Source: Sulfurospirillum deleyianum DSM 6946 (GTDB lineage Bacteria; Campylobacterota; Campylobacteria; Campylobacterales; Sulfurospirillaceae). From it: a DNA stretch of 64,000 nt. Position 1 is the stretch's first letter, and each line of letters starts with the position of its first letter. The translations under genes and the position numbers were made by a program. The notes under the pieces are model-generated. The model did not search any database, was not told where the DNA came from, and was given only the letters and a program-made list of their open reading frames with translations. This document shows, one piece after another, positions 23,914 through 39,729 of this stretch. Where the stretch lies: contig NC_013512.1 in assembly GCF_000024885.1 (NCBI RefSeq), forward strand, positions 868,001-932,000. Reading direction: 5' to 3'.

Positions 23914-24639
<726 letters not shown>

Positions 24640-24713
24640 AAAAAGGAGCAACAAATCCGAGACTCTATAAAATAACGTTTAAATACACTATGTGTGTCGA
24701 CTTTGATGTGGAT

Positions 24714-24762
24714 ATTGTTGCTAAATGTAATTGTAGCAAAAAGAAAAAAATATAGCAACAAT
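24714..24762. repeat. 10-bp inverted repeat upstream of the effector operon
   Basis: ATTGTTGCTA (24714-24723) pairs with TAGCAACAAT (24753-24762) across a 29-nt loop. It sits just before a TATAAT box at 24768-24773 in the gap between cas6 and cas8b, so it could be an operator or RNA hairpin. Confidence 0.4.
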
Positions 24763-24767
24763 TACTT

Positions 24768-24807
24768 TATAATATAACTGGTGTTTTTTTGAAAAAAGTG
24801 TTATACT
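24768..24807 (+). promoter_or_regulatory. Probable promoter(s) of the cas effector operon
   Basis: Two -10 like boxes are visible: TATAAT at 24768-24773 and TATACT at 24802-24807. The second lies 27 bp before a small ORF with a good SD. No clear -35 is present, which is usual in Campylobacterota. Confidence 0.45.
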
Positions 24808-24833
24808 TTCCAAAAAATAAAATTGGAGAGCAT

Positions 24834-24929
24834 ATGAAGCAGCATTTTAGATTCATAATGGAGATGTTGAAAAATATTTTAGCTATGCTTTATTTTACGA
24901 TAAAGCTTTTTAAAGAATTGTATCATTGA
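24834..24929 (+). CDS. Possible 31-aa leader peptide upstream of cas8b
   Basis: An ATG with a strong SD (TTGGAGAG, ending 4 nt upstream) opens 31 codons and ends 31 bp before cas8b. The peptide (MKQHFRFIMEMLKNILAMLY...) is hydrophobic and basic and could form an amphipathic or membrane helix. No family is recognised. It could be a leader peptide, a toxin-like peptide or chance. The strong SD and promoter context are the only support. Confidence 0.4.
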   Translation: MKQHFRFIMEMLKNILAMLYFTIKLFKELYH

Positions 24930-24960
24930 GCGATCATAATTATAACTTTAAGGATTAATC

Positions 24961-26664
24961 ATGAAGGAACAAAATTTATTTAGTTCTAACAATACAGGAA
25001 TTATAAAAATCTTTACATATAAGGATTTTTTCTACAATAACGGGATCGTGAATCTGTACCAGTTTCTCCAAAACAAAGATTTTGATATAACTTTTTCATT
25101 ACATCAAAATGAATTAACCTTAGAATTTGATGCGCAAAAAGAAGATCAAGTTTATACTCAAATCCTTAATTCGTTTTTAAAAGACAATAAAATAGTTTAT
25201 CAAACAGATAATGATCGGTGGTATTTTGATGAAACTAAAATGGATTTTATTGTAGATAAAAAGTTTGACACCAAAGGTGGTCAGAAAAATGATTTACGAA
25301 ATGGTGTTTATTTGTACAAAAAAATATCAGAGTTAGGATTAAGTCGAGAAGAGGTTGAAAAACTTTATCTTGATTTCTGCGAAAGAACGAAGTTAAAGCC
25401 AGAAACAGAGTCAAATGGTACTTTAAAAGTTCCCAATAAAAACAATGAAGTGATTGTTGCTATCGCATTAGATACGGCGATTGAGCGATTTAGCCAGTAC
25501 TTTGCCAGTACTGATATTTTATCGATTGATTCAAAAATTCACTCTTTTGAAGATGGACAAGACTATTTTCACGACATGCTTAAACAGCCACAAACGTACA
25601 AAATAGACAAATGGAATGCTTTAATGTATTGGTTTGGTGGACGAGTACAAAGATTTTATAATTATTCGTATTTTATTTATCCTAATTCATCTAACTTGGA
25701 AGCACTCAATACCTTTAAAAAGTTTTTACAAATCAATGACAATAGACAAGAGTATAGAAATGATGATGGCAAAGTTGTGACTACGTCTTCAAATATAGAT
25801 TTCTTTAACATTCTAAGAAAAGATGAAATTGTCAATAAATACTTTTATATTTCCAAAAGTGCCGAAGAGTTTGAAGTGAAGTTTTTTATGTATCTTTTTT
25901 CGGTAATTTATCATATTGAAAGTGAATATGAGAGTTTACAAGATGAAGATTTGGCAGTGTTGTTTGACGACGATACCCTTGAGAATTCAAAAATATTGTT
26001 TGAGCTTTTACAATACATGAGTTTTGTTATTTATACCGATGATGGAACCTTTAAAACTTCGTTGAGTGAATATACTAAAGCGTATCGACTTATTCAGTTC
26101 TTTATGAAATTAAAAGAAGAATCGCTTTTTAAATATTTAGGGCATGTGTTTCAGGTTTTTTCTTTATCGCAAAGCAAAGATGAAGTTAATTTAAATTTAC
26201 AACATTGGTGTCAAAAAATACTTTCATTTAACAATGTGCGAAAAGAGTATTTTGCGGCGAGTTTTTCTATTTTAAAAAATAATTCACAAGGTTTTGGAAA
26301 AGAGTTATATGCGTTTGAACAGAGTTATTTAAAAAATATTTTAGGAGGAAGTGAAATGGGTATTCATGAAAATGCTAAGAAAATTGGCGATGGTGTTGGC
26401 TTCTTTTGTGCGGAGCTTGGTGATAAAGACTTATTATTTAAGCTAAGAAGCGTTAAAAACTATAAACAGTTGGTGTCATATTTTAAAGATTTGAAATTTT
26501 CAAGTCTTAAAAATGCAGACAAAGCACGATTTTCTAATGAGTTTAATGAATCACTGGAAAATCTTTTAGTCAATGTTGAACAAAATTGGGAAATTGCAAG
26601 AGATTATATAGCAATCTATGCAATCGATAAATTTAAAACAGTTAGTTTTGCAAAAACAAAATAA
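24961..26664 (+). CDS. cas8b: Cas8b-like large subunit of type I-B Cascade
   Basis: The 567-aa protein occupies the large-subunit position directly before cas7 and cas5. The sequence is divergent. The start (TYKDFFYNNGIVNLYQFL), the central YWFGGRVQRFYNYSYFIYP and the C-terminal KIGDGVGFFCAELGDKDLLFKLRSVKNYKQLVSYF resemble Cst1/Cas8b1-type proteins, although the CXXC pairs of some members are absent. The role is PAM recognition and recruitment of Cas3. AAGGA precedes the ATG. The gene is distinctly AT-rich. Family assignment rests largely on position. Confidence 0.75.
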   Translation: MKEQNLFSSNNTGIIKIFTYKDFFYNNGIVNLYQFLQNKDFDITFSLHQNELTLEFDAQKEDQVYTQILNSFLKDNKIVYQTDNDRWYFDETKMDFIVDKKFDTKGGQKNDLRNGVYLYKKISELGLSREEVEKLYLDFCERTKLKPETESNGTLKVPNKNNEVIVAIALDTAIERFSQYFASTDILSIDSKIHSFEDGQDYFHDMLKQPQTYKIDKWNALMYWFGGRVQRFYNYSYFIYPNSSNLEALNTFKKFLQINDNRQEYRNDDGKVVTTSSNIDFFNILRKDEIVNKYFYISKSAEEFEVKFFMYLFSVIYHIESEYESLQDEDLAVLFDDDTLENSKILFELLQYMSFVIYTDDGTFKTSLSEYTKAYRLIQFFMKLKEESLFKYLGHVFQVFSLSQSKDEVNLNLQHWCQKILSFNNVRKEYFAASFSILKNNSQGFGKELYAFEQSYLKNILGGSEMGIHENAKKIGDGVGFFCAELGDKDLLFKLRSVKNYKQLVSYFKDLKFSSLKNADKARFSNEFNESLENLLVNVEQNWEIARDYIAIYAIDKFKTVSFAKTK

Positions 26665-26676
26665 AAAGGAGAAAAA

Positions 26677-27597
26677 ATGTTTTTAAATATTGCGTATATT
26701 ACAAAAGTAAATGTGGCTTCACTTAATGGTGGCGAAGGTTCTGGTGGTAATGTTACGGTCATGAAGAAAATCTCCAATGCAAACGGCGATGAATTTGCGT
26801 ATGTGTCAGGGCAAGCGTTACGTAGATACATGAAAGAAACTTTGATGCAACTTGGAGAAAAAATCAGTAGTGTTGATGAAGATGGCAATCCAACGGTTGA
26901 AGAAAATGGTAAGTATCCATCGCTCAATGCAAAAATAGACGACAAACAACGAGAAAAAATTTTTAAATCCGTATGTGATTTGGATTTGTTTGGATTTATG
27001 TTGCCCAAAGGTGGTCGAAGATGGTCTCCTATCAAAGTGAGTCCAATGGTTTCTATATTTCCCTATAAAGGCGAATATGACTATTTGACACGCAAGCAAA
27101 AAACAGAAGATGAGAGTAAAAAAAGCGGCAATATCGTACAAGTAGAAATTGATACTTTGAATTTTATGAGAGGAAATATTATGATAAATCTTTCTCATAT
27201 CGGTAATGAAATTAACGAATATACCTATGAAGTCAAATCAATTTTAAGTGATGAAGAGAAAAAACAACGTTTAAATGTATTTCTTGATGCTATTAAATCC
27301 TTTAATGGCGGTGCAAAACAAGCTCGCAATCTTGAAGATATTGCTCCAAAATTTGTTATTGTCGCAAAGCAAAAAACAGGAAATCCCTTTTTATTAAATG
27401 CTTTAAGCGTGGATTCTGATGGGAGCATTGACATAGAAACAATCCAAGAAGCTTTAAAAGATAATAAACCTGAGTCATATACCATCGGAATTACTAAAGG
27501 AATTTTTACAAATGAGGCAGAAATAAGAAGCTCTTTTGATAATGTTGTGAGCGTTGCACAAGCTCTTGAAGAGTACAAAAATAATTTAGGAGCTTAA
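26677..27597 (+). CDS. cas7: Cas7 backbone subunit (Cst2/DevR type)
   Basis: The 306-aa protein begins FLNIAYITKVNVASLNGGEGSGGNVTVMKKI, which fits the DevR/Cst2 branch of Cas7 (RAMP fold), and continues with EFAYVSGQALRRYMKETL. Multiple Cas7 copies coat the crRNA. It lies 12 nt after cas8b with AAAGGAG as SD. Confidence 0.9.
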   Translation: MFLNIAYITKVNVASLNGGEGSGGNVTVMKKISNANGDEFAYVSGQALRRYMKETLMQLGEKISSVDEDGNPTVEENGKYPSLNAKIDDKQREKIFKSVCDLDLFGFMLPKGGRRWSPIKVSPMVSIFPYKGEYDYLTRKQKTEDESKKSGNIVQVEIDTLNFMRGNIMINLSHIGNEINEYTYEVKSILSDEEKKQRLNVFLDAIKSFNGGAKQARNLEDIAPKFVIVAKQKTGNPFLLNALSVDSDGSIDIETIQEALKDNKPESYTIGITKGIFTNEAEIRSSFDNVVSVAQALEEYKNNLGA

Positions 27598-27598
27598 A

Positions 27599-28312
27599 AT
27601 GGAAGCCATCCGTTTTGAGGTTGAGGGACTTTTGAATTCGTTTAGAGTCCCTTTTTTTAGAACCTACCATAAAACGTTTTTAGCTCCACCGAAAACTACG
27701 ATTATTGGGCTTTTGTGTAATATTGCATTAAAATCTCAAAAAGAATTTTTTGAGATTTTAAATCAAGAGTTGATAGATGTATCTGTCATTATTGATGAAA
27801 TCAATGGAAAAACAAAAGATTTATGGAGTTATAAAACATTAGAAAAAGGGAATATGGGAAAAAGCGTTATAAGAAGAGATAAGCTCTTTTTATCAAAATA
27901 TACGATTTATCTAAGTATCAAAAATAAAACACTTTTTGATGAAATATACAGTGCTTTAAAAAATCCAAAAAATACTCCTGCTTTAGGCTTAGATGATGAG
28001 TTAATTATTATCAAAAATGTCACAATGATTGACGATTTGCCTTTAAATCAATCGGGGAGAATTAATTCTGTATTTTTGAATAAAGCATATCACTATAAAG
28101 CATTTATCAAAGATCTCAATCAACCTTTGGAGTTACCAACACCTAATTTAACACCGATTAAATTCAATGCTTTTGATAAAAAAGGTAATAGAATTTCAAA
28201 AGAAGTTTTATTGGAATATCCACAAGTAGAGTTTATTAATTGTGAAATACAGTTAGACGATGTCGTAAGTTATATAGATACAGAAAAAGAGAATAAAATG
28301 GTGTTTTATTGA
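27599..28312 (+). CDS. cas5: Cas5 subunit of type I-B Cascade
   Basis: The 237-aa protein begins AIRFEVEGLLNSFRVPFFRTYHKTFLAPPKTTIIGLL, the typical Cas5 N-terminus with the RAMP strand and the PPKTT(I/V)xGLL segment. Cas5 caps the 5' handle of the crRNA. It starts 1 nt after the cas7 stop and its TGA overlaps the cas3 ATG. Confidence 0.92.
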   Translation: MEAIRFEVEGLLNSFRVPFFRTYHKTFLAPPKTTIIGLLCNIALKSQKEFFEILNQELIDVSVIIDEINGKTKDLWSYKTLEKGNMGKSVIRRDKLFLSKYTIYLSIKNKTLFDEIYSALKNPKNTPALGLDDELIIIKNVTMIDDLPLNQSGRINSVFLNKAYHYKAFIKDLNQPLELPTPNLTPIKFNAFDKKGNRISKEVLLEYPQVEFINCEIQLDDVVSYIDTEKENKMVFY

Positions 28313-30525
28313 TGGAAATAGTTGCTAAAAAGTCAAATGAAAGGTACCAAACGCTTGAAGAGCATACACAGTGGGTCGTAGAAGAAGCGCTCAATCAAAT
28401 TGACCCACAAATACTTCATAAAGTTTCTACATGTACGGGTTGGAGTGAGCAAAAAATTCGTGATTTGATATTTTTTAGTGCCTATTTTCATGATATTGGA
28501 AAAGCAACGGTAGAGTTTCAAGAAACAATAAATAATGGAAAGAAATCATACCATCCATTGTATGGAGCTTCTTTATTGTTACATATCAAAGATTTTGTTT
28601 ATAAAGATATTGGAGAAAATAATCTATTATTTTCTATTGTTTTATCACATCATTCGTTATTTCCAAAGCAATATGATAGTGCAAATTATAATTTTACATT
28701 TTTACCTCAATATTCAGTGTTGTTAAAAAATTACTCATCATTGTATGAAAAAACTTTCAATGAAGTATGCCCCTATCTTTTTGAGTTTAAAGAAATCAAG
28801 AGAGAGTTGTATCAAAAATATGTTGATATTTCGGAAAAACGATTAGCAGATATACAAAGTTGTTTTAAATTTAGAGTTCTATACTCTTATGTATCAGGCA
28901 TTTTAAATCTAGCTGATTGGTTAGCAAGTGCAAGATTTACGCAAACAAAACCAACGACGACCTTTTTAACATTACCAACAAAAGAAAATTTTGTAACACA
29001 TTTAACGTTTGATGAATTAAGACCTTTTCAAGAAGAATTATCATCTTTAGATAAAAGTGTACTTGTTGAAATCCCAACAGGCGAAGGTAAAACCGAAGGT
29101 TCTTTACTTTGGGCAATTTACAATCTTTATAATCAAAATACCAAAATCATCTATACGCTTCCTACTCAAACAACTTCCAATAAATTATATGATCGAATCC
29201 AGAATTTTTTTGATAAAGAAGAGTGCGGATTGATTCACTCTACGGCTAAAATATTTCTCGAAAAAGCTTATGAGAAAGAAAATGGCATTGTCGATGATGT
29301 TTTTCAAAGCGATTTTCTCATTAGTAAAAGTTTCAATAAGCCTATCACTGTATCGACCATTGATTCGTTATTGAAGTATTTTATTAACATAGGAAGATTC
29401 AATATTGCAACAAAAAACTTTTTAAATTCTGTCATTATCATTGATGAAGTTCACGCTTATGATTTTAAGTTGATGGGATTTCTAAAACGATTTTTAGAGT
29501 TATGCCAAGAATACGATGTGAGAGTTTGTTTGATGAGTGCATCCATCCCCAATCAACTTAAAAAACTGTTAGGAATAGATACTTATCCTCTTGTGACTCA
29601 GAAAGATTTATTTGCAAAAAAAGCCAATGAAATTATCAAAAAAGAGATGTTTTTAGATGATGATTTAGAGTCAATGATGCAAAAGTTTCATGAGAAAAAA
29701 AATGTTTTAATCATCAGAAATACAGTTAAAAGCGCATTTCAGATTTACAATGAACTACAAACATTGGGTATAAAAAGTGACGATATGATTCTTTATCATT
29801 CTACTTTTAAAAAAAGAGATAGAGCAACGAAAGAAGACTTAATTTTTGAAAAACTTAATTCAAAAAAACCTTTTATTTTGATAGCTACTCAAATAGTAGA
29901 AATTTCACTTGATATAGATTTTGATGTTATGTTTACCGATAACGCACCTATTGATGCTCTTATTCAAAGGTTTGGAAGGGTTAATCGTAAAAAATCTATT
30001 GAGCGAAAAGGTGAAATCTTTATCTATCAAAACAAAAATATCAGACCATATACAAATGAATCATTGTTGGACTTAACGTTTCAAACAATTCAAAACGGAT
30101 ATTATGAACTCGGTCAATATGTAGAATGGCTCAACATTGTATATGATAAATTATTTGAAGATGATACACAATTAAAAAATGTCAAAATAAGACTTTTTGA
30201 TCCTGCTTGTTTAAAATATGATGCAACAATTAAACAATTACATGGTATAGAAAAATCATCGGATAATTATGATTTAAGAGATATTGAGCAGCCTAAAAAC
30301 GATTATTTGCTTTATGATGATTATATGAATGAAGAGATAAAAGCGAAGGATTATTTTGAATACAGCATATCTTTGCCTTTATATTATGAGGGCAAAAATA
30401 AAGAAAATATACATCCAATAGATGATGAAAAATTGTACTACAAAGTCTTAAAGCTTGACTATACACTTGATGAGGGGATAACGTTGGATGTGGATAATCA
30501 AGGCATGAAAGAACTTGGAGCATAA
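28312..30525 (+). CDS. cas3: Cas3, HD nuclease-helicase
   Basis: The 737-aa protein joins an N-terminal HD nuclease (HD at residues 60-61 in YFHDIGKATVEF, LSHHS later) to a superfamily 2 helicase. The helicase has Walker A VEIPTGEGKTEG near residue 250, the DEVH box in IIDEVHAYD near 377, the SAS motif in LMSASIPN and QRFGRVNRK near 551. Cas3 degrades DNA marked by Cascade. I chose ATG at 28312, overlapping the cas5 TGA (TGATG). A TTG one codon upstream is possible. It is AT-rich like cas8b-cas5. Confidence 0.95.
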   Translation: MEIVAKKSNERYQTLEEHTQWVVEEALNQIDPQILHKVSTCTGWSEQKIRDLIFFSAYFHDIGKATVEFQETINNGKKSYHPLYGASLLLHIKDFVYKDIGENNLLFSIVLSHHSLFPKQYDSANYNFTFLPQYSVLLKNYSSLYEKTFNEVCPYLFEFKEIKRELYQKYVDISEKRLADIQSCFKFRVLYSYVSGILNLADWLASARFTQTKPTTTFLTLPTKENFVTHLTFDELRPFQEELSSLDKSVLVEIPTGEGKTEGSLLWAIYNLYNQNTKIIYTLPTQTTSNKLYDRIQNFFDKEECGLIHSTAKIFLEKAYEKENGIVDDVFQSDFLISKSFNKPITVSTIDSLLKYFINIGRFNIATKNFLNSVIIIDEVHAYDFKLMGFLKRFLELCQEYDVRVCLMSASIPNQLKKLLGIDTYPLVTQKDLFAKKANEIIKKEMFLDDDLESMMQKFHEKKNVLIIRNTVKSAFQIYNELQTLGIKSDDMILYHSTFKKRDRATKEDLIFEKLNSKKPFILIATQIVEISLDIDFDVMFTDNAPIDALIQRFGRVNRKKSIERKGEIFIYQNKNIRPYTNESLLDLTFQTIQNGYYELGQYVEWLNIVYDKLFEDDTQLKNVKIRLFDPACLKYDATIKQLHGIEKSSDNYDLRDIEQPKNDYLLYDDYMNEEIKAKDYFEYSISLPLYYEGKNKENIHPIDDEKLYYKVLKLDYTLDEGITLDVDNQGMKELGA

Positions 30526-30529
30526 ATAA

Positions 30530-31021
30530 ATGCAAATTAACGGCACTCTCATTTCCTATTATTTCATCTGTAAAACAAAACTTTGGCTTCACGCCAATCG
30601 CCTCAATCTTGAAGATAACAGCGAAGATGTGCGCATCGGGAAAGTGTTGCATGAGATCAGCGAAGAGAAAGCACAAAAAGCCGAAGTGAAGATAGACAAT
30701 GTCAAGATCGACAAGATTACCAAAGAGTACCTTGTGGAGCTGAAAAAGTCCGACTCCGACCCTGAAGCGGTGAAGTGGCAGGTGTTGCTTTATCTGTATA
30801 AACTCAAAGGTAAAGGCATCGAGCGCAAAGGCAAAGTCGAGTACCATGAGAAAAATCATAACACCAAAAGCGAGATACTCGAATTAACCGAGCAAAACGA
30901 ACACGAGCTTTTGCGTGTTTTAGAGGCAATTACACAGCTTATCAATGCCGAAGTTCCGCCACCGCCTAAGTTTGAGAACAAATGCAAAAAATGCGCTTAT
31001 TTTGATTACTGTTTTATATGA
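30530..31021 (+). CDS. cas4: Cas4, Fe-S cluster exonuclease for spacer acquisition
   Basis: The 163-aa protein has the Cas4 layout: MQINGTLISYYFICKTKLWLHANRL with the first cluster Cys at 14, a nuclease core with ELKKSD and KWQVLLYLY, and a C-terminal CKKCAYFDYC with three more cysteines. Cas4 trims prespacers and selects the PAM. From here on the codon use shifts to C-ending codons, unlike cas3 only 4 nt upstream. Confidence 0.93.
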   Translation: MQINGTLISYYFICKTKLWLHANRLNLEDNSEDVRIGKVLHEISEEKAQKAEVKIDNVKIDKITKEYLVELKKSDSDPEAVKWQVLLYLYKLKGKGIERKGKVEYHEKNHNTKSEILELTEQNEHELLRVLEAITQLINAEVPPPPKFENKCKKCAYFDYCFI

Positions 31022-31027
31022 GGTAAC

Positions 31028-32340
<1,313 letters not shown>

Positions 32341-32504
32341 TTTTCCAACCACAGTTTAGTCTTTTTTAGGCGAAAAGTTGCTAAAATACGGCGTTAAATC
32401 GCCTTTTTGATCTTTAACAATTCATTGTTAATTTTAATTGGAAAAAACGACACAAATGGCTATTTTATGGGATTTTGTATTTTAGAAAGCACCATAATCT
32501 AGCC
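32341..32504 (+). promoter_or_regulatory. CRISPR leader
   Basis: The 164-bp AT-rich non-coding stretch between cas2 and the first repeat is the leader. It contains a terminator-like hairpin (32390-32408) and a perfect 8+8 palindrome TTAACAAT-TC-ATTGTTAA (32414-32431). T-rich blocks before the first repeat contain -10-like TATTTT/GTATTTT. The array promoter and the Cas1-Cas2 docking site should be here. The degenerate repeat at the far end confirms this is the leader side. Confidence 0.7.
32390..32408 (+). terminator. Terminator of the cas operon
   Basis: GGCG-TTAAAT-CGCC followed by TTTTT. The stem is only 4 bp, extended little by flanking bases, so strength is uncertain. Confidence 0.45.
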
Positions 32505-34035
32505 CTCGAACCGACACAAGATTTGTATTTAAACCGTTTAATCAATCTCAAAAGACACTTAAAAAATATACTCGAACCGACACAAGATTTGTATTTAAAC
32601 TTTTTTGGCACTTCTTGGCTCTCTTTTGGCTTTTCTCGAACCGACACAAGATTTGTATTTAAACAATTTAGAAAGTTCAATGTTTTTTACTGCAACTGCC
32701 TCGAACCGACACAAGATTTGTATTTAAACTAAGAGCTTTATCTCTTTTTTCTTTAGTTGTAGGCTCGAACCGACACAAGATTTGTATTTAAACAGATATG
32801 CAACCGATGGCGCAAGTGCTTTTGATCTCTCGAACCGACACAAGATTTGTATTTAAACTGAAATGAAATTTGACCGCCCAACTTATGTGCCTGTCTCGAA
32901 CCGACACAAGATTTGTATTTAAACCCTATTCACAATGGGACTTAACAGTAAATAGCACACTCGAACCGACACAAGATTTGTATTTAAACCGCCCAAAAGC
33001 TAATTGATACTTAGACGCTTTCTTCTCGAACCGACACAAGATTTGTATTTAAACATCCTAAAAAAAGCATTTATGCTAAAGGGTGGCGCACTCGAACCGA
33101 CACAAGATTTGTATTTAAACAACGACAAACACAAAATTCATCTACTAGGCGGAAAGCTCGAACCGACACAAGATTTGTATTTAAACCTCTTCGAGCTTGA
33201 CCCGTGAGCTTATCGTCTCCTCGAACCGACACAAGATTTGTATTTAAACACGGAAGCAAAAGCGTTTCCACGCTTTTGTGTTTCTCGAACCGACACAAGA
33301 TTTGTATTTAAACTGTCGTAGCTTGCTCCGCTTGTCAATGGAATTTCCTCGAACCGACACAAGATTTGTATTTAAACAAAAATGAGAACGGTTGAGAGTA
33401 TAATAAATGATAACTCGAACCGACACAAGATTTGTATTTAAACCACAGAAGAGTATAAAAAGCCTATAAAATTATTATTCTCGAACCGACACAAGATTTG
33501 TATTTAAACTATCAGGGAACTCTTTTTCTTTTTTAGAAAAACATACTCGAACCGACACAAGATTTGTATTTAAACTGTAACAATAATTATGCATTGTACT
33601 GTGTGTGAAATTCTCGAACCGACACAAGATTTGTATTTAAACAACAGTAGGCGTTATTATAGGCTATTTAATCGTTTACTCGAACCGACACAAGATTTGT
33701 ATTTAAACCATAAAGACAAAAAGGGGATAAGATGGAAGAGATTCTCGAACCGACACAAGATTTGTATTTAAACTACCTAAACTAGGTGTTGAAAAAACCA
33801 ACAGCTAACTCGAACCGACACAAGATTTGTATTTAAACAAAATAGTTTGAAATTTCTCCAAGCTAGTGTTCTCTCGAACCGACACAAGATTTGTATTTAA
33901 ACTGACCCACCAAAGTTTTTTAATGATGGCACAAAGCACTCGAACCGACACAAGATTTGTATTTAAACTGCTATAAAACTCTTCAACACCTTTAGCGATT
34001 GACTGCTCGAACCGACACAAGATTTGTATTTAAAC

Positions 34036-34133
34036 CGGTGGAGAGCTTGCAGATGTTAGGAGGCAATCACTCGAACCGACACAAGATTTGTATTTAAACC
34101 GGTGGAGAGCTTGCAGATGTTAGGAGGCAATCA
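34036..34133 (+). repeat. Tandemly duplicated spacer-repeat unit 1
   Basis: Spacers 34036-34069 and 34100-34133 are identical 34-mers separated by one repeat, which indicates local duplication of a unit. Confidence 0.95.
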
Positions 34134-37043
34134 CTCGAACCGACACAAGATTTGTATTTAAACATGATTTGTGTCTCTTTTTCTGTCTCAAATTGTGAAC
34201 TCGAACCGACACAAGATTTGTATTTAAACCGGGTGCAAAAGCTCTTTTGACGTTGACGTGGTTTTCTCGAACCGACACAAGATTTGTATTTAAACTTGCT
34301 TCTTTTGTCATCTCTACCCCTTTAAAATTTCTCGAACCGACACAAGATTTGTATTTAAACTGATAAGGTAACAGAAATCGTACGTCCTCACTTTCTCGAA
34401 CCGACACAAGATTTGTATTTAAACAGCATTTGTAAGAAGTAGGTAAGCACTTGGCGGTCGCTCGAACCGACACAAGATTTGTATTTAAACCCGATAGAAT
34501 TATTATGATTAGTGAAGATGGAACTATCTCGAACCGACACAAGATTTGTATTTAAACCTTTAAAGATTTTATAAGCCCGTTTTTATAGTTCCTCGAACCG
34601 ACACAAGATTTGTATTTAAACAAACAATGGAGCACTATAAAGTTAAAATAAGTGTTTCTCGAACCGACACAAGATTTGTATTTAAACTTGATTGAGAAAA
34701 ACTAACTTCCAACCGTCCAAAGCTCGAACCGACACAAGATTTGTATTTAAACTATCCTGAGCCAAACGATAATTTAAAATCAATCTGCTCGAACCGACAC
34801 AAGATTTGTATTTAAACCAAAATAGTCTCCTTTTCTTTAAAATTGATAATGAAACTCGAACCGACACAAGATTTGTATTTAAACCTAGATGCGTTACATG
34901 TAAACGAAACAGAGAATGGCTCGAACCGACACAAGATTTGTATTTAAACAAGGATGAAGAAGTTAAAGAAGTCATGCTTGTTAGGCTCGAACCGACACAA
35001 GATTTGTATTTAAACTCAGATACCTTAATGGTTTCGTCCGAAATTTGCATCCTCGAACCGACACAAGATTTGTATTTAAACCATCAAGCACTGTTTCGCT
35101 TGATGATATAGATATCTCGAACCGACACAAGATTTGTATTTAAACACTCATAAAGCTCTTTTGGTAAATCATCTCTCATTCCTCGAACCGACACAAGATT
35201 TGTATTTAAACCAGAAGGGGATAATGTCGTCCGTGATGTCAATATCCTCGAACCGACACAAGATTTGTATTTAAACGATGGATAGATACAAAGCAAACAG
35301 TACAACACATCTCGAACCGACACAAGATTTGTATTTAAACCAGTACAGCACCGAAGGAAGCAGTGCGTTTGACCTGCTCGAACCGACACAAGATTTGTAT
35401 TTAAACAGTTTCATGCCTTGGTATGGTGACATTCTTACTACCTCGAACCGACACAAGATTTGTATTTAAACAAAAAAGCCAAAAAAGAGCCAAAAAGTGC
35501 CAAAAACTCGAACCGACACAAGATTTGTATTTAAACAGGCAAAACACGGTCTTAACGCCTCGCCCCACCCTTCTCGAACCGACACAAGATTTGTATTTAA
35601 ACAAAAAGGAACTGACAATGCAAATGGTGCAAAAACTACTCGAACCGACACAAGATTTGTATTTAAACATTTTAATGGATGATGATAAGCTCTTATACTA
35701 TTTTCTCGAACCGACACAAGATTTGTATTTAAACCATAGACGAAAAGTCTCTAAAACTAAGATGAGAAATCTCGAACCGACACAAGATTTGTATTTAAAC
35801 AAAAAAGAAACCTAGCACAAGAACAGACCAGACCCCTCGAACCGACACAAGATTTGTATTTAAACCAGTTCGAGTATTTAGAAAGTGTGGAAAAAATTAT
35901 TCTCGAACCGACACAAGATTTGTATTTAAACATTTTGATGGATGATGATAAGCTCTTATACTATTTTCTCGAACCGACACAAGATTTGTATTTAAACTCA
36001 GCTAATAGTATTCAGGTTATGTATATTATCGAACTCGAACCGACACAAGATTTGTATTTAAACTTAGTAGATGGAAGAATAGAAAATACATTAGAAGCTC
36101 GAACCGACACAAGATTTGTATTTAAACAAAAAAGAAACCTAGTACAAGAACAGACCAGACCGCTCGAACCGACACAAGATTTGTATTTAAACTATATGGG
36201 AAGCAAAAGAAAATTATCTTCTAAAATTCTCGAACCGACACAAGATTTGTATTTAAACCCACAATAGGATAAAAAATGGATTTATACGTAAAACTCGAAC
36301 CGACACAAGATTTGTATTTAAACAATATCCTCTGTTTTCCAGTCGTAAATTGGGTAAACTCGAACCGACACAAGATTTGTATTTAAACTATATCAGTAAT
36401 AGGTACTACAATGGCATCAGTTGGCTCGAACCGACACAAGATTTGTATTTAAACTAAGTTCAATATGACATAAGTCTTCAGCATACTTTGCTCGAACCGA
36501 CACAAGATTTGTATTTAAACTTTAGCCCTCATTTAAGGGCTTTATCTTTTCAAACTCGAACCGACACAAGATTTGTATTTAAACTATTGCTGAAATATTA
36601 GTTAAAGCAAATGAAGAAGACTCGAACCGACACAAGATTTGTATTTAAACATGGAAAACGCAGGTAGAAAAAAAAATAAAATGACACTCGAACCGACACA
36701 AGATTTGTATTTAAACTTATTTAGAAGATACGATTAGAGATTTACATCAAGCTCGAACCGACACAAGATTTGTATTTAAACAGCGACCCGACTCTTGTTA
36801 CAATATCTGCGATATCTCGAACCGACACAAGATTTGTATTTAAACCTGTTGATAATGCAATATCAGCCTGCGAATAGGTAACTCGAACCGACACAAGATT
36901 TGTATTTAAACTACATCAGGATTTGACATATACTTGATACCCTCTGTCTCGAACCGACACAAGATTTGTATTTAAACATTAATGGGTGTGCTGCAATCCA
37001 TTTCACGGAGTTTCTCGAACCGACACAAGATTTGTATTTAAAC

Positions 37044-37147
37044 CTGGTAGCGTTCAACTACACACACACAAATAGCAATTCTCGAACCGACACAAGATTT
37101 GTATTTAAACCTGGTAGCGTTCAACTACACACACACAAATAGCAATT
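37044..37147 (+). repeat. Tandemly duplicated spacer-repeat unit 2
   Basis: Spacers 37044-37080 and 37111-37147 are identical 37-mers with one repeat between them. Confidence 0.95.
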
Positions 37148-39729
37148 CTCGAACCGACACAAGATTTGTATTTAAACTTGAGCTTTTTTAATCTATGAAA
37201 TTCAGGAGGACATCTCGAACCGACACAAGATTTGTATTTAAACCAACACCAAAAATGGCACTTATACGTTTCCTAATGCTCGAACCGACACAAGATTTGT
37301 ATTTAAACATGCTTTCAATGTCAAGCTTCATTTTAAGCTACTTCTCGAACCGACACAAGATTTGTATTTAAACAGTATATCGCTTTTGGTCGTTTGCATC
37401 CCGATTGAACTCGAACCGACACAAGATTTGTATTTAAACATACGTCAAAGAGCCTTATCAAAACATCGAATCTCACTCGAACCGACACAAGATTTGTATT
37501 TAAACCAACAACCCCCTAAAGTTTCTTAACTTTCTTCAAATCCTCGAACCGACACAAGATTTGTATTTAAACTGACATAAACGCCATCTTGCAATGCTTT
37601 TTTAATAGACTCGAACCGACACAAGATTTGTATTTAAACAAGGTACTTTCGCCTCTTCTTGAGGCGCTTGAGGCGCTCGAACCGACACAAGATTTGTATT
37701 TAAACGTTAAAAACCATCTTCCCATTATTATTAAATTTTGGCTCGAACCGACACAAGATTTGTATTTAAACAAGTAATTTACGCATAGTAACTAAGTAGT
37801 CAGGTATCTTCTCGAACCGACACAAGATTTGTATTTAAACGTCTATAATAACAATCGCTCCGCTAGTGGCTTTTGCTCGAACCGACACAAGATTTGTATT
37901 TAAACTGTGGACAGAGCGTTTTGCAGTCGAAGGCATAAAGGTCTCGAACCGACACAAGATTTGTATTTAAACAGTTCACTTTCAACATCAATGCTAAAAG
38001 AAGCGTTTCTCGAACCGACACAAGATTTGTATTTAAACTACTTTTCAGGTGTATCGATGTAAAGGATACGTACTCGAACCGACACAAGATTTGTATTTAA
38101 ACATCTTTAGAGATGGGCGCTACTTACATGTTAAAACTCGAACCGACACAAGATTTGTATTTAAACAACGCTGGGGGCTTCTCTATGGAAGATTTTAACC
38201 GAACTCGAACCGACACAAGATTTGTATTTAAACCGGCAAGAGTGGGATGTGATAATCTCTAACCCACCCTCGAACCGACACAAGATTTGTATTTAAACCG
38301 CAAATATTCTTCTACATGTAAAGAAAAATGGATCCTCGAACCGACACAAGATTTGTATTTAAACCACTATGATTCTTCAAAAGAGGTTTTTAGAATAGAG
38401 CTCGAACCGACACAAGATTTGTATTTAAACCCTATTGATGACTTCCTTTACCATCCCCTTTTTACTCGAACCGACACAAGATTTGTATTTAAACAATGAT
38501 GCGAAAATAGTTCTGATGACAATAGACACACTCGAACCGACACAAGATTTGTATTTAAACAATTAATTAAAGGTTCACACCCAAACAAATCAATACTCGA
38601 ACCGACACAAGATTTGTATTTAAACGTTGGAAGCGTGACAGGTAATTGGAGAATAATTTCCTCGAACCGACACAAGATTTGTATTTAAACATGCTTTTAG
38701 CTTCTTTTTATGTAGGCAAATACACTCGAACCGACACAAGATTTGTATTTAAACTGTCAAAATCAAATCATCTTTATCAAAATAATTTTGCTCGAACCGA
38801 CACAAGATTTGTATTTAAACCGCCAACACGTCAGGGAATTATGCCCACGCCAACACTCGAACCGACACAAGATTTGTATTTAAACTGTCCGTACCCGAAC
38901 CATTAGAATCTTTAATAGCGTTCTCGAACCGACACAAGATTTGTATTTAAACGACGAAGACACGGTAAAGGTTTTGCGATTCGATGTTCTCGAACCGACA
39001 CAAGATTTGTATTTAAACCTCTCAACCACCGTCACAGGGATTTTTTTACCGTTAACTCGAACCGACACAAGATTTGTATTTAAACTTTGGAATAATTGGC
39101 TTAATCCACCCATGACCTGCTCGAACCGACACAAGATTTGTATTTAAACTTGTTTAAAAGCTTAGCCCCATTGCTGAGGCTTAACCTCGAACCGACACAA
39201 GATTTGTATTTAAACCTTGGAAGCGATAGGACTTAAAAATAAAATGCGCCTCTCGAACCGACACAAGATTTGTATTTAAACAAGAACGGTAAGCCTAGAA
39301 CGCTTATGATGTTGACTCGAACCGACACAAGATTTGTATTTAAACAAAAATGGCTATTTCCTTACATGTAAGGCTTCTGCTCGAACCGACACAAGATTTG
39401 TATTTAAACAACAATAGAGCGAGAGACATTTTTGTCATTCTCTTCTCGAACCGACACAAGATTTGTATTTAAACATTATTTTATTAACCTTTACATGTAG
39501 ATGGTTCGCACTCGAACCGACACAAGATTTGTATTTAAACGAAATTGATGATGGTGATGAAGTTATATGTGATCCACACTCGAACCGACACAAGATTTGT
39601 ATTTAAACCTTTGGAAATACTACGGAGGCGGTAAGAAAATAAAACTCGAACCGACACAAGATTTGTATTTAAACAGGTTTCTGCTTTTACTTATTAGGTT
39701 TTTTAGGATTCTCAAATCGACACAAGATT

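What the first reader, a model, noticed from the sequence alone, without database searches (positions are those of the whole stretch)
35669..36162. Repeat acquisition of the same protospacers with point mutations
Spacers 35669-35704 and 35932-35967 are the same 36-mer except one A/G change. Spacers 35801-35835 and 36128-36162 are the same 35-mer except two changes. Both pairs interleave within 500 bp and keep the same boundaries. This looks like a second encounter with a mutated relative of one invader, possibly an escape variant, and not a simple array duplication.
Basis: partly seen in the sequence, partly recalled or inferred. Interest (0 to 1): 0.65.

Follow-up and report, generated by a model that had tools for sequence, protein, structure and literature searches.

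The report
CRISPR array re-sampled drifting phage sites
A bacterium's CRISPR memory holds two pairs of almost identical entries that were most likely recorded separately, from related phages that had drifted by harmless mutations, and not made by copying within the array; this is a clear natural example of a known process and there is no sign of phage escape.

Summary
In a 110-repeat, 109-spacer type I-B array of Sulfurospirillum deleyianum DSM 6946, spacers 49/53 differ at position 6 and spacers 51/56 at positions 16 and 35. Array duplication fits badly: no neighbouring spacer is shared, all 110 repeats are identical (0 changes in 3300 nt against 3 in 71 nt of the pairs), and true duplications in related arrays are exact ordered blocks. 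Independent re-acquisition fits well. The 49/53 peptide ILMDDDKLLYYF matches, at 29/36 nt, the rep gene of a filamentous prophage in a congener. Three other spacers of this array hit the same prophage, and the A/G change is a silent Leu codon change. Spacers 2/46 of the same array form a third such pair, from opposite strands, with two silent changes. A congener's array has one with seven silent changes. The escape idea is not supported: position 6 is the seed position that does not pair in two studied type I-B systems, and positions 16 and 35 lie outside the seed. The protospacer of 51/56 was not found, so 'one invader' is unproven. Known phenomenon; a well-resolved natural example; modest interest.

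The parts
23917..32340 (+). Type I-B cas operon: cas6, a 567-aa ORF in the large-subunit (cas8b-like) slot, cas7, cas5, cas3, cas4, cas1, cas2
   Evidence: Pfam and NCBIfam: Cas6 TIGR01877, Cas7 TIGR02585, Cas3 core TIGR01587, Cas4 TIGR00372, Cas1b TIGR03641, Cas2 TIGR01573; the 567-aa ORF has no family hit, its role is inferred from position
32341..32504 (+). Leader: the side where new spacers enter
   Evidence: between cas2 and the first repeat; shares blocks (TTAATTGGAAAAAAC, GGCTATTTTATGGG) with the leader of the related pSulSP array
32505..39674 (+). CRISPR array, 110 identical 30-nt repeats, 109 spacers, youngest at the left
   Evidence: a degenerate repeat-like sequence follows at about 39705, marking the old end
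35669..35704 (+). Spacer 49, pair A, younger copy (ATTTTA...)
   Evidence: 29/36 match to a filamentous prophage rep gene, L048:17105
35932..35967 (+). Spacer 53, pair A', older copy (ATTTTG...), one difference at position 6
   Evidence: same protospacer homologue, silent Leu TTA/TTG
35801..35835 (+). Spacer 51, pair B, younger copy
   Evidence: target not found
36128..36162 (+). Spacer 56, pair B', older copy, differences at positions 16 and 35
   Evidence: the position 16 change is silent in two of the four open frames
32601..32634 (+). Spacer 2, third near-identical pair C with spacer 46, opposite strand
   Evidence: two differences, both silent in frame KSQKRAKKCQK
35472..35506 (+). Spacer 46, partner of spacer 2 in reverse complement
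34036..34133 (+). Spacers 24/25, exact tandem pair
37044..37147 (+). Spacers 70/71, exact tandem pair
37440..37542 (+). Spacers 76 and 77, also target the same filamentous prophage (3-4 mismatches)
38953..38988 (+). Spacer 99, also targets the same filamentous prophage (3 mismatches)

Best explanation
The two pairs are independent acquisitions of homologous protospacers from diverged relatives of the same phages. The type I-B adaptation module (Cas1-Cas2-Cas4) selects protospacers by a CCA-type motif, which fixes the left edge, so the same favoured site is cut at the same boundary each time a related phage is met. The older copies (56, then 53) came first; later, phages carrying drifted versions of the same genes were sampled again (51, then 49). 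For pair A the target is the 3' end of the replication-initiator gene of a filamentous (inovirus-like) phage, and the difference is a silent codon change. Shown: the pairs, their order relative to the leader, the lack of shared neighbours, the unmutated repeats, the inovirus rep homology and the silent change. Inferred: that both members of each pair were taken in by this lineage, and that existing partial immunity helped (interference-driven acquisition).
For: Neighbours 48, 50, 52, 54, 55, 57 and 58 show no block similarity. 110/110 repeats are identical, so 3 changes in 71 nt of the pairs against 0/3300 in repeats gives Fisher p=7e-5; against exact block and tandem duplicates (0/467) p=0.002. 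Duplications in related arrays are exact ordered blocks: pSulSP 2-4=15-17, G006 127-135=136-143. Same-site diverged pairs recur: pSulSP 29/44 and G022 3/50 also differ in length, a mark of separate acquisition; window 2/46 and G015 4/110 are on opposite strands with 2 and 7 changes, all silent in one frame. Pair A peptide scores 59 against a null maximum of 40, on a prophage also hit by spacers 76, 77 and 99. Among 2.9 million viral contigs only that prophage encodes LMDDD(K/Q)LLYYF. PAM CCA in 14 of 23 protospacers.
Against: No exact protospacer exists in the searched collections for either pair, and none at all for pair B, so allele history is not observed directly. By base rate most duplicate-spacer candidates are duplications (86%) and few are re-acquisitions (1%) in a large reconstruction (PMC11472070). 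Repeats may be kept identical by selection or gene conversion, which would weaken the mutation-rate argument. The two changes of pair B do not share a codon phase.
Confidence: 0.85

Rival explanations
1. Escape variant: the phage mutated the targeted site to evade the older spacer, and the host re-acquired the mutated site.
For: Same sites, point differences, later acquisition nearer the leader. Primed acquisition from escapees is a known process (PMC5059440).
Against: Pair A differs only at position 6, where a mismatch did not affect binding in Thermotoga I-B (PMC13199841) and pairing is not required in Haloferax I-B (PMC4390866). Pair B differs at positions 16 and 35, outside the seed. The pair A change is silent.
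Confidence: 0.06
2. Array duplication followed by point mutation and loss or replacement of neighbours.
For: Duplications are common in CRISPR arrays generally (PMC11472070) and occur in this genus; the two pairs lie close together.
Against: The offsets differ (4 and 5 units) and nothing between is shared. No repeat is mutated. Known duplicates show 0 changes in 467 nt. Explaining the data needs a duplication, an internal insertion, replaced spacers and three substitutions confined to two spacers.
Confidence: 0.07
3. Recombination between arrays of two strains, each of which had separately acquired an allele of the same site.
For: Identical repeats give ample homology for crossing over. It explains diverged copies equally well.
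Against: It should bring runs of shared older spacers in order; none is seen. The cited reconstruction, relying on earlier work, treats recombination between arrays as rare (PMC11472070).
Confidence: 0.08
4. Sequencing or assembly artefact in a long repeat array.
For: Arrays of 7 kb with identical repeats can be misassembled.
Against: Closed reference genome whose length matches the published one (PMC3035281). The same pattern occurs in several other genomes. Errors would not favour silent positions.
Confidence: 0.02

Closest known systems
Independent acquisition of the same protospacer (Legionella type I-C, PMC5071653)
   Same: the same protospacer captured more than once, with the position set by the PAM
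   Different: there an identical plasmid site in laboratory cultures; here two alleles within one natural array
Interference-driven (targeted) acquisition, type I-F (PMC5059440)
   Same: an existing matching spacer would promote further acquisition from the same invader
   Different: there new spacers are described close to the targeted site on the displaced strand; here the same sites recur and the activity was not tested
Spacer duplications and reacquisitions in SpacerPlacer (PMC11472070)
   Same: classifies repeated spacers as duplication, rearrangement or reacquisition
   Different: needs related arrays; here the distinction rests on sequence divergence and codon pattern inside one array
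CRISPR spacers against inoviruses (PMC6813254)
   Same: host spacers directed at filamentous phages
   Different: the passages read there do not deal with paired alleles of one site; here the rep gene of a Sulfurospirillum inovirus was sampled twice

Membership tests
[quoted passage not shown]
   Cas5 matches Cas5t (type I-B) below its curated cut-off but passes the general Cas5 domain cut-off
[quoted passage not shown]
   567-aa ORF in the right place with no Pfam or NCBIfam hit
[quoted passage not shown]
   14 of 23 protospacers with at most 4 mismatches have CCA, 2 have CCG
Segmental duplication of an array | neighbouring spacers copied in the same order | tested here: not met
   no similarity among flanking spacers
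Segmental duplication of an array | copies identical or mutated at the same rate as the repeats | tested here: not met
   3/71 against 0/3300, p=7e-5
Re-acquisition of a protospacer | same PAM-side boundary and diverged sequence without copied context | tested here: met
Re-acquisition of a protospacer | both alleles present in real phages at that site | tested here: inconclusive
   only a third, more distant allele of site A found; site B not found
CRISPR escape variant | change in PAM or seed that blocks interference | tested here: not met
   changes at positions 6, 16 and 35; position 6 dispensable in I-B (PMC4390866, PMC13199841); PAM of the true target unknown
Inovirus target | replication initiator, Zot-like assembly protein, secretin and small coat protein | tested here: met
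   Pfam REP_ORF2-G2P, Zot and Secretin pass their cut-offs; Phage_Coat_B is below its cut-off; PHROG pIV and Zot

The most novel reading that the evidence does not exclude
In this genus the I-B adaptation machinery repeatedly refreshes memory against phages it should already recognise, re-sampling fixed hot-spot sites as the phages drift silently, so one array holds time-ordered allele pairs of the same phage sites and can be read as a record of phage molecular evolution.
Probability: 0.3. Interest if true: 0.5.

Novelty: new member of a known kind. Interest (0 to 1): 0.3.

Why it matters
It shows how duplication and re-acquisition can be told apart inside a single array, from silent-codon divergence set against unmutated repeats, without related strains. 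It ties pair A to a filamentous phage, and suggests that repeat sampling of the same site may be under-counted when near-identical spacers are merged as duplicates. For the finding itself, it replaces an escape story with ordinary phage drift.

Tried and rejected
Exact and degenerate searches for A and B in 2.9 million viral contigs: only the G002-type filamentous prophage for A, nothing for B. Mismatch-tolerant searches in 24 genus genomes for A and B, and a degenerate one for B in 299 order genomes: only the array itself. BLAST of the whole array against phage and plasmid collections: no match to A or B among the listed rows. Peptide search of all spacers against inovirus relatives: B does not match any. 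A genome-contig scan with Rep found no relative. The other Sulfurospirillum Rep proteins have a different C-terminus at the A site, so they could not supply alleles. Escape and duplication were considered and rejected as above.

Full report
Setting. The window lies in a closed chromosome of 2,306,351 bases, the published length of Sulfurospirillum deleyianum DSM 6946 (PMC3035281). A type I-B cas operon (cas6, a 567-aa ORF in the cas8 position, cas7, cas5, cas3, cas4, cas1, cas2) is followed by 110 identical 30-nt repeats with 109 spacers at 32505-39674. No other copy of the repeat, with up to 3 mismatches, exists in the genome. The stretch before the first repeat shares sequence blocks with the leader of a related plasmid array, and a degenerate repeat-like sequence follows the last repeat. 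Spacer 1 is therefore the youngest.

The observation. Spacers 49/53 (one difference, position 6) and 51/56 (two differences, positions 16 and 35) are real and exactly placed. From old to young the order is 56 (B'), 55, 54, 53 (A'), 52, 51 (B), 50, 49 (A). Lengths match within each pair (36/36 and 35/35), which has a chance of about 0.29 per pair and so says little.

Duplication or separate acquisition. A copied block should carry neighbours in order. None of the spacers 47-59 outside the pairs shows more than a weak, isolated resemblance to another: scores at most 12 against 34 and 32 for the pairs, with background mean 5.8 and 95th percentile 8. The A copies are 4 units apart and the B copies 5 units apart. 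All 110 repeats are identical, so the array has accumulated no visible change in 3300 nt of repeats, yet the pairs differ at 3 of 71 positions (Fisher p=7e-5; with an upper-bound rate of 3/3300 the chance of 3 or more changes is 3e-4). A caveat is that repeats could be kept alike by selection or gene conversion.

Comparison with sister arrays. Thirteen arrays of the same repeat type, about 750 spacers, were parsed. True duplications there are exact ordered blocks: pSulSP spacers 2-4 equal 15-17, and G006 spacers 127-130 and 132-135 equal 136-143. Together with the window's tandem pairs these are 467 nt without a change (p=0.002 against the A/B pairs). Isolated exact repeats also occur there (for example G015 69/78, G006 42/56), and these cannot be assigned to copying or re-acquisition. 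Isolated diverged pairs with the same PAM-side boundary occur elsewhere: pSulSP 29/44 (36 and 35 nt, seven differences) and G022 3/50 (36 and 37 nt, one difference). Unequal lengths point to separate capture. Two opposite-strand pairs were also seen. Window 2/46 has two differences, both silent in the frame KSQKRAKKCQK. G015 4/110 has seven differences, all at third codon positions, leaving YASYQEYSQNI unchanged. These differences look like phage genes drifting under purifying selection, not decay inside an array.

Target of pair A. At up to 8 mismatches the genus gave protospacers for many spacers; of those with at most 4 mismatches, 14 of 23 have CCA directly 5' of the protospacer and two have CCG. 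Site A matches 29 of 36 bases, PAM CCT, at L048:17105 in a prophage of genome G002. That genome is probably S. barnesii SES-3; this name rests on genome length from memory, not on a tool result. The site encodes VLMDDDQLLYYF near the C-terminus of a 446-aa replication initiator (Pfam REP_ORF2-G2P). The spacers encode ILMDDDKLLYYF, and five of the seven base differences to the prophage are silent. The A/G difference between the two spacers is the third base of a Leu codon. The prophage carries a Zot-like assembly protein, a secretin of the pIV type, a coat-like small protein and an integrase, so it is a filamentous phage. Spacers 76, 77 and 99 also hit it with 3-4 mismatches. The peptide score for A is 59, against a maximum of 40 for reversed spacers. 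A degenerate search of 2.9 million viral contigs found this peptide only in that prophage's own record. The exact source phage is not in the collections.

Target of pair B. Nothing was found in viral contigs, with exact or degenerate patterns in three frames, in 24 genus genomes or in 299 genomes of the order. The position 16 change is silent in two of the four open frames (KKKPSTRTDQT and VWSVLVLGFFF), so it is compatible with coding drift but not proof. Whether A and B lie on one element cannot be told.

Escape. With the PAM on the 5' side, the seed is the 5' end of the spacer. In Thermotoga type I-B a mismatch at position 6 had no effect on binding, and a mismatch at position 9 or 33 bound like a full match (PMC13199841). 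In Haloferax type I-B the first ten bases must pair except position 6 (PMC4390866). The pair A difference therefore sits on the one seed position that is free to vary, and the pair B differences lie outside the seed. By these rules, which were not tested in this species, the older spacers should still have recognised the younger phages. That fits interference-driven acquisition, shown for type I-F (PMC5059440), better than escape; the step is inferred.

Prior knowledge. Two independently acquired spacers for one protospacer have been seen in Legionella (PMC5071653). In a large reconstruction 86% of duplicate-spacer candidates were duplications and 1% reacquisitions (PMC11472070), so this case is in the minority class. 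Inoviruses are commonly targeted by CRISPR (PMC6813254). I found no paper describing this kind of allele pair inside one array in the open-access library; that is a limited search.

Verdict. Observation confirmed. Re-acquisition from drifted relatives is well supported, escape is not supported, and a common source for A and B is not shown. Ordinary in kind, with an informative natural record.

Noticed in passing
window 32601-32634 and 35472-35506: Spacers 2 and 46 are reverse complements with two silent differences: a third re-sampled site, taken from both strands.
   Followed up: yes
window 24961-26664: 567-aa ORF in the cas8 slot of a type I-B operon with no Pfam or NCBIfam hit: a divergent large subunit.
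   Followed up: no
L048 4456-19156: In G002 a filamentous prophage sits directly beside that genome's own CRISPR array, apparently flanked by a repeated stretch; it carries a PAPS-reductase-like gene.
   Followed up: partly
L114 spacers 4 and 110: Opposite-strand spacers covering the same 36 nt, with seven differences, all at silent third codon positions.
   Followed up: yes
L121 (G006) spacers 54, 55, 67, 68: The same spacer present four times, once one base shorter, plus an overlapping reverse-strand spacer 63: a strong acquisition hot spot.
   Followed up: partly
L114 spacer 55: A spacer of G015 matches the filamentous phages L093 and L047 perfectly with PAM CCA: a link between congeners and this phage group.
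   Followed up: no
window 36324-36358: Spacer 59 matches at about 91% identity a PAPS-reductase-like (IbrA) gene in Streptococcus thermophilus phages; possibly a conserved coding motif.
   Followed up: no
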